64,000 nucleotides of DNA, taken from Thermosynechococcaceae cyanobacterium Okahandja (GTDB taxonomy: Bacteria; Cyanobacteriota; Cyanobacteriia; Thermosynechococcales; Thermosynechococcaceae). Positions 19,986 through 25,450 of the stretch are shown here, piece by piece. How positions within the stretch are numbered: position 1 is the first letter of the stretch; each line of letters starts with the position of its first letter. The stretch is from assembly GCA_041530395.1 (NCBI GenBank), contig CP136945.1, positions 62,001 to 126,000 on the forward strand. Reading direction: 5' to 3'. The notes under the pieces are model-generated. The model was not told where the DNA came from. It worked only from the letters and a program-made list of their open reading frames with translations, and made no database searches. A program made the translations under genes and the position numbers.

Positions 19986-21448
19986 CCGGAGTTCTCGATC
20001 GCCCCTATAGCATGGCCGATTGGCGGGGGGGCACCCAATCCCTGCGGGAAGAATACGACTACTGGATTGATGAGGTGGAGGGCACCGTCCCCCCAGACCT
20101 GAACGGCACCCTTTACCGCAACGGCCCCGGACTACTCGAGCGTGGTGGCGTGCCTTTGGCCCATCCCTTTGATGGGGATGGCATGATCTGTGCCTTTCGC
20201 TTTGACCATGGCCGCGTTCACTTTCGCAATCGCTACGTGCGCACCGCCGGATTTCTGGAAGAGGAAAACGCAAATCGCCTCCTTTATCGGGGTGTTTTTG
20301 GCACCCAAAAGCCCGGGGGCTGGCTGGCCAATGCCTTCGATACGCGGATTAAAAATATTGCCAATACCCATGTGATTTACTGGGGCGGTAAGTTACTGGC
20401 CCTGTGGGAAGCGAGTCTGCCCCATCGCCTTGATCCGGTCACCCTAGAGACCCTAGGGTTAGATGATCTCAACGGCTTGCTCGGCGCTAACGATGCCTTT
20501 GCGGCGCACCCCCGCTTCGACCCCCAAACTCAGCGGCTGGTTAATTTTGGCGTCAAGCCGGGGCTGAGTACCCGCATTCACCTCTACGAATTTGCCGCCA
20601 GTGGCGAGTGTGTGTCCCAACCGGTCTTTCAGATTCCCGGTTTTGCCTTTATTCACGATTTTGCCCTCACCCCCCACTACGCCATTGTGTTTCAGAATCC
20701 GGTGCGGCTCAATCCGTTTCCGTACTTGCTGGGGTTGCGCGGCGCGGCACAGTGTATTGCCTTTAACGCTAACGAGCCAACCCGCATCTGGTTACTGCCG
20801 CGAGCGGGTGGAAAGCCGCAGCCGTTTACCATGCCCGCCTGCTTTGTCTTTCACCATGCCAATGCCTATGAGGTGGGGGACGAAATTCACATTGAGTCTA
20901 TTGCCTACAGCCATTTTCCCACCCTAGAGCCGGGAACAGATTTTCGTGAGGTCAATTTTGCTGCCCTGCCCGCCAGTCTGCTGTGGCAAATCACGATTAA
21001 TCGCTCGACTGGCAAGGTGCAATCCACCATTGTGGACGATCGCCCCTGTGAGTTTCCGGTCGTGCATCCGGCCAAGGTGGGGCAACCCTACCGCTATACC
21101 TATCTTGCGGCGGGCCATGATCCCAAGGTAAATGCTCCGTTGCAGGCGCTTTGGCGTTGCGATCGCGACACCGGCGAGCAGCAGTTTTGGTCCGCAGCTC
21201 CCAAAGGCTTTGTCAGCGAACCCATTTTTGTCCCCCGTGGCCTTGCGCCGCAGCAATTTCTCTGGCAGGGTGCCCAAGGGGAAGACGACGGCTGGCTCTT
21301 GCAGGTGATGTACGATGCCGGTTCTGGCAAATCCCAGTTATTAATTTTTGATGCCGCAGCCATTCATGCCGGCCCCGTTGCCCGCCTCACCTTAAAGCAT
21401 CATATTCCCTACGGCTTACACGGATCCTTTACAACCTACATGACCTAA
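19982..21448 (+). CDS. Carotenoid oxygenase (apocarotenoid-15,15'-oxygenase type)
   Basis: 488-aa RPE65-family non-haem iron dioxygenase that cleaves apocarotenals/carotenoids, e.g. to retinal. The four Fe2+-ligand histidines fit the family spacing: His176 (AHPRFD), His225 (FIHDFA), His291 (FVFHHANA) and His480 (GLHGSF). RNGPG near 46-50 and HPFDGDGM at 61-68 mark the beta-propeller entry. Size and motifs resemble the Synechocystis ACO (Diox1) more than NCED-type enzymes. Its ATG overlaps the transporter stop by 4 bases, giving a two-gene operon. Confidence 0.92.
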   Translation: MTGVLDRPYSMADWRGGTQSLREEYDYWIDEVEGTVPPDLNGTLYRNGPGLLERGGVPLAHPFDGDGMICAFRFDHGRVHFRNRYVRTAGFLEEENANRLLYRGVFGTQKPGGWLANAFDTRIKNIANTHVIYWGGKLLALWEASLPHRLDPVTLETLGLDDLNGLLGANDAFAAHPRFDPQTQRLVNFGVKPGLSTRIHLYEFAASGECVSQPVFQIPGFAFIHDFALTPHYAIVFQNPVRLNPFPYLLGLRGAAQCIAFNANEPTRIWLLPRAGGKPQPFTMPACFVFHHANAYEVGDEIHIESIAYSHFPTLEPGTDFREVNFAALPASLLWQITINRSTGKVQSTIVDDRPCEFPVVHPAKVGQPYRYTYLAAGHDPKVNAPLQALWRCDRDTGEQQFWSAAPKGFVSEPIFVPRGLAPQQFLWQGAQGEDDGWLLQVMYDAGSGKSQLLIFDAAAIHAGPVARLTLKHHIPYGLHGSFTTYMT

Positions 21449-21556
21449 AGGAAGGAAAAGGCAATCACCCGTTGTAGGGTCAACTTCTGTACTATACTTA
21501 TGCCGTGAGGCATGTCACTCAGCGACGTCAGGAACGAGCGTCAGGAAACGAAGCAC

Positions 21557-22033
21557 ATGAATGAATTTGACACACCACCATCCACCGAAACAACCCACAC
21601 GGAAGCGCCCCTTACTGGGTTAGATAGCACCCCAGCAGGGAGCTTAGCCGGACGCGAACTGGCAAAGCCAGCACCAGCAGCGGGTGGGTTAACGGATGAA
21701 CAGTGGCAGCAAGCTCGCGAAAAGCTCTACTGGCTGCTGACGGTTTTTCCCGATCAGGTGGGACATTTTTGGGGCGAGTATAAGCAGCCCCTCCGCACCC
21801 TTTTCATTATTTTGGCAACGGTTCCGTTTGTGGCACTGGCGATCGCCATTCTGGAAGTGGTCAACGCCATTCCGCTTCTAGCCCCTACCTGTCAACTCAT
21901 CGGCTTTGGCTACGGCACGTGGTTTCTCTATCGCTACGTGCTGTTTGACGCTGGGCGGCGCGAGTTCACCCAAAAAGTCAACGATTATAAGCAACGCATT
22001 CTAGGAGACATTAACTCCTCGAATCCGTCTTAA
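21557..22033 (+). CDS. CAAD-domain thylakoid curvature protein (CurT/CURT1-like)
   Basis: 158-aa protein with an acidic, Pro/Thr-rich N-terminus (about 1-60), then a CAAD domain: an amphipathic helix (LTDEQWQQAREKLYWLL), two closely spaced transmembrane helices (about 92-112 and 116-136) and a second amphipathic helix (RREFTQKVNDYKQRIL). This topology is that of CURT1/CurT proteins, which bend thylakoid membranes. ATG 21557 is chosen over an upstream in-frame start for its AGGAAA site and because the residues before it look non-coding. A CAAD domain also occurs in some aminoacyl-tRNA synthetases; none is attached here. Confidence 0.85.
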   Translation: MNEFDTPPSTETTHTEAPLTGLDSTPAGSLAGRELAKPAPAAGGLTDEQWQQAREKLYWLLTVFPDQVGHFWGEYKQPLRTLFIILATVPFVALAIAILEVVNAIPLLAPTCQLIGFGYGTWFLYRYVLFDAGRREFTQKVNDYKQRILGDINSSNPS

Positions 22034-22107
22034 CCTACCCCGTTGGTACAAGTAGTTACTGCTTCTTGTCGGCTCTTCTAGACGTGGGGTGAAAATGGTG
22101 CTGAACC

Positions 22108-22131
22108 TATCACCACATAACCAGAAGAGCC
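22108..22131 (+). repeat. Copy 1 of a short repeat flanking the HicAB locus
   Basis: TATCACCACATAACCAGA and following bases match 22767-22790 at 16 of the first 18 positions, same strand. It also contains one arm of an inverted repeat, GGCTCTTCT (22071-22079) with AGAAGAGCC (22123-22131), loop 43 bases. The 22034-22224 spacer holds no gene. Confidence 0.5.
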
Positions 22132-22224
22132 ATCTTAGTGTTGGCAATAACGATGAAGTTGAGCCACCGCATATAGCTTCTGATGCTCACGCATGTTTCC
22201 AATACGGTCGGTGCTAACGCAGTG

Positions 22225-22440
22225 CTAGGCGGCAACCTCGACATAGGCCGAAGAAGTGGTTGGTTGTGGAATTTCTAGCCCTTCCGACCTTAAACCATCC
22301 AAGTGGAACTCTACCGCCTCACGCATATTTTGTTCAACTTCTTCACGGGTTGCCCCTGTCGAGACACATCCCGGTAAATCTGGAGAATAAGCAGAATATC
22401 CAGTTTCCGTCTGCTCAATTACAATAAGATACTGCATCAT
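22225..22440 (-). CDS. hicB: HicB family antitoxin
   Basis: 71-aa HicB-fold protein: MMQYLIVIEQTETGYSAYSPDLPGCVSTGATREEVEQNMREAVEFHLDGL followed by a short tail. The SPDLPGC and T..E...N..EAIE-like motifs are typical. HicB binds and neutralises the HicA mRNA interferase. It lacks the C-terminal DNA-binding domain of long HicBs, so it is the short form. Its first ATG (22440-22438) overlaps the hicA stop (22439-22437). It sits in an AT-rich, repeat-flanked accessory pocket. Confidence 0.85.
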   Translation of the reverse strand: MMQYLIVIEQTETGYSAYSPDLPGCVSTGATREEVEQNMREAVEFHLDGLRSEGLEIPQPTTSSAYVEVAA

Positions 22441-22622
22441 TTCAGCCCTGCCTGTTTCAGGATGCTATTCAACGTTCCCTGCGCCAGAACATCACCCAGT
22501 TTTCCGGGTACAGTGACTAAACCTCGCTTGACAGAATGTTTATACTGACGATGACTACCCCGTATCCGAACCAGATACCAGCCATCTTGCTCGAGTAGTT
22601 TGATGACATCCCTAACCTTTAC
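22437..22622 (-). pseudogene. hicA: HicA mRNA interferase-like toxin, no standard start codon
   Basis: An open frame of 61 codons, VKVRDVIKLLEQDGWYLVRIRG.. SHRQYKHSVKRGLVTVPGK.. LAQGTLNSILKQAGLK, matches the dsRBD-like HicA fold, including the catalytic His of GSHRQYKH. The place where ATG is expected is GTA (22622-22620), preceded in frame by GGC and TGA, and no ATG/GTG/TTG occurs before the domain core. So it is either inactivated at the start codon, started at a rare codon such as ATC (sixth in-frame position on), or a sequence error. The rest of the frame is undamaged. Stop overlaps the hicB start. Confidence 0.75.
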
Positions 22623-22766
22623 GCCTCAAACTTACAAAATACGCAGGTATTTGTCAACGCGGATTTTCTGATTTCTTTGTAGAAATAACGAAGCTTATAT
22701 TAGTTTCTTTTGTACTAAGTGTTTGGAAAGTTTACCTTAACTAGGTTACAGGCTAGAAGCTCGGCG

Positions 22767-22790
22767 TATCACCGCATAACCAAAGACTCC
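22767..22790 (+). repeat. Copy 2 of the short repeat flanking the HicAB locus
   Basis: TATCACCGCATAACCAAA and following bases, related to 22108-22131. It lies in the spacer after the COG0523 gene (minus strand). The 22623-22825 stretch is AT-rich and otherwise featureless apart from a TTGACA (minus strand, 22657-22652) that could serve hicAB. Confidence 0.5.
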
Positions 22791-22825
22791 CTCCTGCCTT
22801 AACGCTGGGGGGGTAGCATTCGCCG

Positions 22826-23785
22826 CTAAGTAAGACAGGCGGTAAACCCTTGGCGCAACTGCTCGGCATTGAGGTTACGGCCAATAAAAACCAATTCGTT
22901 TCGCCAATGCTCAACCGGACGATCAAGAGGACGGCCATCAAACAGCATATGTACCCCCTGAAACACAAAGGGAGTCTGTTGCCCCGCAAGATGCAAAATC
23001 CCTTTCATGCGGAAAATATCGGAGCCTTGGGTTTGTAACAATTGGCTCAGCCATGCCTGAAAAGCCGCACCATCCAGCTTGCCTGTGGCCACAATAGCCA
23101 CCGAGCCAACAGTTTCATCGTGTTCGTGGTGGTCTTCACTTAAAAAATCGGGATCAAGCGCTACGGCTCGCTCCAGATCAAAGCCGCCCACATTCAGAAT
23201 ATGCTCCATGGGCACGGCAGCGTGCTGCGTGAAATGTACCCTTGCCAAGGGGTTCATTGTCCCAATGCGATCAGCAAGGGCTTGAAGTTCGTCTGCCCCC
23301 ACCAAATCCGTCTTATTCAGGAGAATGACATCGGCAAAGGCAATCTGCTCTTGGGCTTCTGCTGCGTCCCAGTGGAGTTGAATGTGCTTCGCATCAACAA
23401 CGGTAACGACTGCATCAAGGTGGGTTTGCTGGCGAATATCCTCATCCATAAAAAAGGTTTGAATCACAGGAGCCGGATCCGCTAGCCCCGTCGTTTCAAT
23501 CACCAAGTGGTCAAATTTATGGCGGCGCTTCATGAGATTGCCAATGATGCGGATGAGATCACCCCGCACCGTACAGCAAATACAGCCGTTATTCATTTCA
23601 AAAATTTCTTCATCGGTATTGACCACCAATTGATGATCAATACCCACCTCGCCAAACTCATTCACAATTACCGCGACTTTTTTGCCGTGCTCGTAGGTCA
23701 AAATCCGGTTTAGAAGAGTGGTTTTGCCAGCCCCAAGGTATCCTGTTAGAACGGTAACAGGAATTGTGCCATTGCTACTTGTCAT
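22826..23785 (-). CDS. COG0523 (CobW/YjiA/ZNG1-like) metallochaperone GTPase
   Basis: 319-aa G3E GTPase. Walker [10 protein letters not shown] is at 15-23, the metal-binding CICC motif (Cys68, Cys70, Cys71) at 68-71, guanine-specificity NKTD further on, and a CobW C-terminal domain at the end. A short His/Asp/Glu run (EDHHEHDE) in the linker is typical of zinc-handling members. The ATG at 23785 gives the family start [23 protein letters not shown]; 25 in-frame upstream codons look non-coding. Function is likely Zn2+ (or Co/Fe) insertion; no Zur box was recognised upstream and no cobalamin genes adjoin. Confidence 0.88.
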
Positions 23786-24785: not shown

Positions 24786-25079
24786 TTAGCCACGATTAGC
24801 AAAGGCAAACACATGGGCACAAACATGAGCAATTATGGCCGCCTCTAGGCCATAGCGCCAGAATAGGTAACCAGCAATGAGGCCAAACAGCGCATTGCCG
24901 ATAATGATGTAGGCCGCCACATCTACCGACAGCGTCGCCAATAACTGGCCTACTGAGGGCAAGTGCAACATCCCAAAGACCAATGCACTGATGGCGATCG
25001 CCCCCCACATCACCGCGGGGGATGGCTGCTGCCGATCTCTGCCTAGAACCCTCTGGCCTGCCCAAGCCACTGCTGTCAT
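24786..25079 (-). pseudogene. C-terminal fragment of a CPBP intramembrane protease
   Basis: A 97-aa frame with FGMLHLP and GLIAGYLFWRYGLEAAIIAHVCAHV, the second and third motifs (His-bearing helices) of CPBP/CAAX-type proteases. The first motif, EExxxR, is absent, and no frame upstream (25080-25213) supplies it. So this is probably a decayed remnant rather than an active enzyme; an intact CPBP gene is at 26606-27202. It converges on nothing and stands beside the rpmB promoter region. Confidence 0.6.
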
Positions 25080-25213
25080 TAAATCCTGAGATCCTGAGTA
25101 GGCGATCGCCTTGGAACTCTTGTGGAGGGGGGTGGAGATAATTCTGCGCTTGTGTTACACTAGTAAACTTGGTTATGTAAGTAGCTAGTGATTGCCTTGC
25201 AAGGGAAAGATTT

Positions 25214-25450
25214 ATGAGCCGCGTGTGCCAACTGACCGGAAAAAAAGCCAATAACGCCTACGCCATTTCCCACTCCCATCGGCGGACAAAGAAACTGCAA
25301 GAAGTGAACCTGCAATGGAAGCGGGTATGGTGGCCGGAGGGGAAACGGTGGGTGCGGCTGCGCCTTTCGACGAAAGCTATTAAAACCCTTGAACGCAAAG
25401 GTTTGGCAGCTTTTGCCAAGGAAGCGGGGTTGAACCTGAATAAGCTGTAA
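25214..25450 (+). CDS. rpmB: 50S ribosomal protein L28
   Basis: 78-aa large-subunit protein: [26 protein letters not shown].. with [24 protein letters not shown] and a basic tail. Length and motifs are those of bacterial/plastid L28. A ribosome-binding site (GGGAAAG) lies upstream of ATG 25214. It is followed by a hairpin and then trmB. Confidence 0.96.

What the first reader, a model, noticed from the sequence alone, without database searches (positions are those of the whole stretch)
22437..22622. HicA toxin frame intact but with no ATG/GTG/TTG start
The frame encodes the whole HicA fold, including the His motif, and its stop overlaps hicB normally. Yet the expected ATG is GTA, and a TGA lies two codons upstream. 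If expressed, it would need a rare start codon; otherwise the antitoxin has been kept after toxin loss. Either case is unusual, because an intact frame suggests recent loss or continued use.
Basis: partly seen in the sequence, partly recalled or inferred. Interest (0 to 1): 0.6.

Follow-up and report, generated by a model that had tools for sequence, protein, structure and literature searches.

The report
HicA toxin gene lacking start codon
In a cyanobacterium a small toxin gene is intact from end to end except that its start signal is missing, so it is most likely a recently switched-off toxin-antitoxin pair: an ordinary event, caught unusually early.

Summary
Minus strand 22622-22437 encodes a complete HicA (PF07927, 81 bits) overlapping an intact HicB (22440-22225) by 4 nt. 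The codon where relatives start is GTA; TGA closes the frame two codons upstream, and the first in-frame ATG/GTG/TTG is codon 51. Of 192 related HicA loci read, 189 have ATG/GTG/TTG at or upstream of the aligned start. One has it only at codon 5 (N-terminal part in another frame). Two have none: ACG in a cyanobacterium whose same-genus sister has ATG, and ATA in a viral contig.

The protein is otherwise typical; D45V is the one odd residue. TTGACA-17-TAAGTT ends exactly 6 nt before GTA, a spacing that would make the mRNA leaderless. That spacing is over-represented in 81 relatives but not in 25 further, mostly cyanobacterial loci. hicB has no Shine-Dalgarno site, so it probably depends on hicA translation.

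Best explanation: a recent start-codon loss (one substitution from GTG) that silences the toxin and probably much of the module. GTA as a very weak start, as with GTC in Streptomyces sigR, is not excluded; nor is a sequence error. Ten same-genus genomes lack the pair. Copies of a small dispersed repeat appear to flank it.

The parts
22437..22622 (-). hicA frame, GTA in the start position, 61 codons plus TGA stop
   Evidence: PF07927 81 bits; start survey
22620..22622 (-). GTA codon where relatives have ATG/GTG/TTG
22626..22628 (-). in-frame TGA closing the frame two codons upstream
22225..22440 (-). hicB antitoxin gene, ATG start, 71 aa, overlaps hicA by 4 nt, no Shine-Dalgarno-like site
22652..22657 (-). 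-35-like TTGACA (6 of 6), 17 nt before the next hexamer
   Evidence: not listed by the stricter scan
22629..22634 (-). -10-like TAAGTT (3 of 6), ends 6 nt before GTA, so that transcription would start at or near the G of GTA (inferred)
   Evidence: not listed
22661..22790 (-). upstream copy of a dispersed repeat of about 130 bp; only 22717-22786 is supported by BLAST, the rest by eye in the alignment
22071..22136 (-). downstream short (internally deleted) copy of the same repeat, with an inverted repeat at its ends; weak matches

Best explanation
This is a type II HicAB toxin-antitoxin module whose toxin gene lost its start codon recently. The simplest path is one transition from GTG, the start in 19 of the 80 relatives. 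Shown: the frame, the missing start, the otherwise typical protein, the overlap with hicB, and the promoter-like hexamers. Inferred: the mRNA would start at or within a base or two of GTA, so ribosomes would meet a leaderless 5' end beginning GUA. Leaderless initiation is poor even on GUG in E. coli, so almost no HicA would be made. hicB, which lacks a Shine-Dalgarno site and overlaps hicA as ATGA, would normally be translated by termination-reinitiation after hicA, so HicB would fall too. The module is then close to silent, which removes the danger of losing control of the toxin and leaves both frames to decay. The decay has hardly begun.
For: Start present in 189 of 192 related loci, absent here. 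Pfam HicA 81 bits, HicB 47.8 bits. Only one rare residue at a conserved column, D45V (77 of 80 relatives have D/E there, one has V), so the loss is recent (the 80 were chosen by similarity to the query, which favours a typical look). TTGACA-17-TAAGTT ending 6 nt before GTA; TANNNT at exactly that distance in 14 of 81 relatives against a mean of 1.25 at other distances, 0 of 500 column-permuted controls as high. hicB follows in 82 of 82 loci including this one, overlapping in 50 and 0-10 nt away in 26. Both HicAB loci of this genome look damaged. A parallel case with a same-genus sister shows start-only loss with both frames intact. Papers, passages seen: leaderless initiation is much weaker on GUG/UUG/CUG in E. 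coli (PMC9031893); overlap drives termination-reinitiation (PMC10666635); leaderless toxin-first TA loci exist in Synechocystis (PMC4963859).
Against: No expression data. The -10-like hexamer matches only 3 of 6, and the stricter promoter scan found no site (0 against 1.2 expected). The 6-nt spacing was not over-represented in 25 further loci (1 of 25), and the spacing test was framed after seeing and does not correct for relatedness. D45V is the only sign of decay. Synonymous sites are saturated against every relative compared, so relaxed selection since the loss cannot be tested. In the parallel ACG case hicA shows 6 synonymous and 2 replacement changes, which fits continued constraint as well as recent loss.
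Confidence: 0.7

Rival explanations
1. GTA is a working but very weak start codon, selected because the toxin must be made in far smaller amounts than the antitoxin, as the GTC start keeps SigR below its anti-sigma factor RsrA in Streptomyces.
For: Intact, typical protein. Two other HicA frames with ACG or ATA in the start position, the ACG one with few replacement changes. sigR-rsrA precedent of a GTN start with the antagonist gene downstream (PMC5472188, passages seen).
Against: sigR has a strong ribosome-binding site; here GAGG lies only 1 nt before GTA and no correctly spaced site was found. The GTA is not shared by any relative read. If the mRNA is leaderless, a non-AUG start is weaker still (PMC9031893). 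hicB would be starved by the same weak start.
Confidence: 0.15
2. The assembly carries a base error at the start codon and the real gene has a normal start.
For: GTA is one base from GTG; the protein looks functional. No reads were available.
Against: Single-contig genome, completeness 100, contamination 0.13; 60 non-overlapping ORFs of at least 100 aa cover 87% of the window, so the assembly is not generally error-ridden. Against this, the second hicB of the genome is also interrupted, which could be decay or error.
Confidence: 0.11
3. HicA is made from another start: the internal ATC (codon 7), CTG (codon 17) or ATA (codon 20), or through the short upstream frame TTG ACA ... GCG TAA (22657-22619) by reinitiation or slippage.
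For: These triplets are present, and the upstream frame's stop overlaps GTA.
Against: Internal starts remove the conserved first residues or more; the upstream frame begins at the -35-like hexamer and no Shine-Dalgarno-like site precedes it by eye. Folding of the region is unremarkable (z -0.12).
Confidence: 0.04

Closest known systems
HicAB type II toxin-antitoxin modules (PF07927 with PF15919)
   Same: HicA fold by profile, histidine motif, toxin-first order, short overlap with hicB; solved HicA chains 6g26_E, 4c26_A and 9svk_A match by sequence
   Different: No ATG/GTG/TTG start for hicA
Start-less hicA of an unnamed cyanobacterium, L237 (G112)
   Same: Complete hicA frame and complete hicB; only the start codon is non-canonical
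   Different: ACG instead of GTA; a same-genus genome (G127, L229) has ATG at that place
Streptomyces sigR-rsrA (PMC5472188, passages seen)
   Same: GTN codon in the start position of the active protein, antagonist gene downstream
   Different: Start proven by experiment, strong ribosome-binding site, GTC not GTA; unrelated proteins
Leaderless toxin-antitoxin loci of Synechocystis 6803 (PMC4963859, passages seen)
   Same: Toxin-first order; transcription start would fall at the toxin's first codon
   Different: There mapped by transcriptome data and for DUF497/RelE toxins, not HicA; here inferred from sequence

Membership tests
HicAB toxin-antitoxin module | HicA domain over its curated cut-off | tested here: met
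   PF07927 81 bits, cut-off 27
HicAB toxin-antitoxin module | Adjacent HicB antitoxin over its curated cut-off | tested here: met
   PF15919 47.8 bits, cut-off 27; 4-nt overlap
HicAB toxin-antitoxin module | Conserved histidine of HicA | tested here: met
   GSHRQYKH present and aligned with relatives; role of the histidine recalled
HicAB toxin-antitoxin module | Translatable toxin gene with a recognised start codon | tested here: not met
   GTA at the aligned start, no ATG/GTG/TTG before codon 51; so filed as a HicAB locus with a start-less toxin, not as a working module
HicAB toxin-antitoxin module | Toxicity of HicA and neutralisation by HicB | not testable with these tools
   needs expression experiments
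Genes with a functional non-canonical start codon | Protein made from the non-canonical codon | not testable with these tools
   no proteome or ribosome data
Leaderless transcripts | Transcription start at the first codon | tested here: inconclusive
   promoter-like spacing fits, the stricter scan finds nothing and 25 further loci do not repeat the spacing

The most novel reading that the evidence does not exclude
HicA toxins recurrently move to near-dead start codons (GTA here, ACG in L237, ATA in L189) while keeping the frame under selection: a translational rheostat that holds toxin far below antitoxin, comparable to sigR's GTC, and working on a leaderless mRNA.
Probability: 0.12. Interest if true: 0.7.

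Novelty: new member of a known kind. Interest (0 to 1): 0.3.

Why it matters
If it is a recent loss, the locus shows an early stage of toxin-antitoxin decay in which one base disarms the toxin while both frames stay readable; gene callers limited to ATG/GTG/TTG would report only an orphan antitoxin. If GTA works, it would be a natural toxin dosed by its start codon. The promoter spacing seen in part of the HicA relatives suggests that some hicA mRNAs are leaderless, which can be tested directly.

Tried and rejected
Rfam search of 21400-23000 found nothing. Promoter/terminator scan of 21950-22900 found no site of either kind. RNA folding at the hicA and hicB starts was unremarkable (z -0.12 and 0.21). 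NCBIfam had no match for HicA, HicB or the 173-aa neighbour. An empty site could not be compared: in five sisters where both flanking genes were found (G001, G003, G005, G006, G008) they lie far apart. pN/pS against relatives is uninformative because synonymous sites are saturated. The six family loci were read on the wrong strand; redid them, and only its values are used. L046 was dropped because of an internal stop.

Leaderless spacing was a chance find, tested and not repeated. The upstream frame 22657-22619 and readthrough of the TGA were considered and rejected by inspection. Near-identical viral copies were not collapsed. Thirteen other loci (L008-L020) were not surveyed for starts.

Literature: 8 searches ran. 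In their listings I saw no report of a start-less HicA or of leaderless hicA, but only 1 of the 24 papers holding both 'HicA' and 'leaderless' was newly opened for that question (PMC3598666, passages; PMC4963859 was already open), and 12 of 24 were listed. Hecht et al. 2017 on initiation from all 64 codons is not held; nothing is quoted from it.

Full report
What is there. The minus-strand frame 22622-22437 begins with GTA, follows TGA by two codons, and runs 61 codons to a TGA that overlaps the ATG of hicB. The protein is a full HicA by Pfam (81 bits, cut-off 27) and the next gene a HicB-like antitoxin (47.8 bits, cut-off 27). No ATG, GTG or TTG occurs before codon 51.

Is a missing start unusual? 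In the 80 nearest loci of the species-representative collection the aligned first codon is ATG in 52, GTG in 19, TTG in 6 and something else in 3; those 3 have a canonical start 2-4 codons upstream. Six loci from the same family or class all have one at or one codon upstream of the aligned place. In 80 loci from viral contigs, 79 have one; the exception, L189, has ATA behind a Shine-Dalgarno-like stretch. In 28 loci from a sample of 386 genomes of the phylum (54 had a match at E 1e-12 or better, the own genome included), 26 have one. L235 has one only at codon 5, and its N-terminal part lies in another frame. L237 has ACG where sister L229 has ATG. After removing two duplicates that is 189 of 192. 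Start loss is thus rare but not unique. Frames broken by stops also occur: 6 of 67 rows, and L004, L006 and L046.

How decayed is it? Against 80 relatives the protein is among the more typical (72nd of 81 from the least typical; one rare residue at a conserved column, D45V, where 77 of 80 have D or E and one has V). The relatives were found by similarity to this sequence, which biases that comparison. Synonymous sites are saturated, so the low pN/pS (second lowest of 81) says only that the gene was long under selection.

A parallel case. G112 and G127, of one genus, are 91% identical over 601 bp at their hicAB. hicA has 6 synonymous and 2 replacement differences over 62 codons after the start, hicB 8 and 7; a model with one neutral branch gives P = 0.015-0.026 for so few replacements in hicA. 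So ACG-hicA lost its start recently or is still used. Of the 5 genomes of that genus, three match only in the flank.

How it would work. TTGACA, 17 nt, TAAGTT ends 6 nt before GTA, which would put the transcription start at the G of GTA. Among 81 relatives a TANNNT stands at exactly this distance in 14, against a mean of 1.25 (maximum 4) at the other 59 distances tested; 0 of 500 column permutations reached 14. Close relatives L023 (TTGACA-17-TAGGCT) and L002 (TATACT) share it. Against this: the stricter scan lists no promoter, the hexamer matches only 3 of 6, the test was framed after the pattern was seen, and 25 further loci, from the phylum sample, show it in only 1. So leaderless transcription is plausible, not shown. 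In Synechocystis three toxin-first TA loci have transcription starts at the toxin's start codon (PMC4963859, passages). In E. coli leaderless initiation on GUG, UUG or CUG is much less efficient than on AUG (PMC9031893, passages), and GUA is expected to be worse (inference).

hicB follows hicA in 82 of 82 loci including this one: overlapping in 50, 0-10 nt away in 26, more than 10 in 5, no start found in 1; 36 of 81 have a Shine-Dalgarno-like site before hicB, this one none. Overlapping pairs depend on termination-reinitiation in the six native pairs tested in PMC10666635 (passages). I therefore infer that loss of hicA initiation lowers HicB as well, so the module is probably near-silent rather than an antitoxin-only locus.

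Alternatives. A weak functional GTA start has a real precedent in kind: sigR of Streptomyces uses GTC, keeping SigR below RsrA (PMC5472188, passages). But sigR has a strong ribosome-binding site, whereas here GAGG sits 1 nt before GTA and no well-spaced site was found. A base error cannot be excluded without reads, though the genome is one contig, 100% complete, and the window is densely coding.

Setting. The window lies in a 2.82-Mb genome. Its family includes a genome (G020) that appears to be the MAG named Thermosynechococcus sp. WC_1, by shared contig length and sequence, so the organism is probably a member of that family (inference). None of 10 same-genus genomes has this hicA or this hicB, so the pair was probably gained by this lineage. 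The repeat that appears to flank it on both sides has four clearer copies elsewhere in this genome and none found in the ten sisters. The window's own copies are too diverged to be listed by that query; they rest.

Verdict. A real, correctly read start-less hicA. Most likely an early-stage inactivated HicAB module; weak-start use and sequence error remain open.

Noticed in passing
L130 (G000:C1:1222357-1222524 region), 1242-1680: Second HicAB-like locus of the same genome, antitoxin first: hicA has a GTG start and 33.6 bits, but the hicB frame is interrupted after 26 codons and continues in another frame with only a weak HicB-like match (15.2 bits, below cut-off). Decay or sequence error.
   Followed up: partly
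window 22071-22136 and 22661-22790; L132, L133, L134, L135: Dispersed repeat of about 130 bp with inverted ends (GGTTCTTCTGG...CCAGAAGAGCC), MITE-like, four clear copies elsewhere in this genome, not found in ten same-genus genomes; diverged copies appear to flank hicAB.
   Followed up: partly
L237 (G112:C1:110188-110367) and L229 (G127): hicA with ACG where the same-genus sister has ATG, both frames intact: a parallel start loss.
   Followed up: partly
L189, from position 1501 (IMGVR_UViG_3300011771_000002): hicA of a viral contig starts with ATA behind AAAGGAG; an ATG in another frame lies just upstream, so an indel or sequence error is also possible.
   Followed up: no
upstream of hicA in 14 of 81 relatives: TANNNT exactly 6 nt before the start codon, across several phyla: possible leaderless hicA transcripts; not repeated in 25 further loci.
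   Followed up: partly
window 24786-25251, minus strand: ORFs in two frames, one resembling a CPBP-type membrane protein by eye: the gene may be truncated or frameshifted.
   Followed up: no
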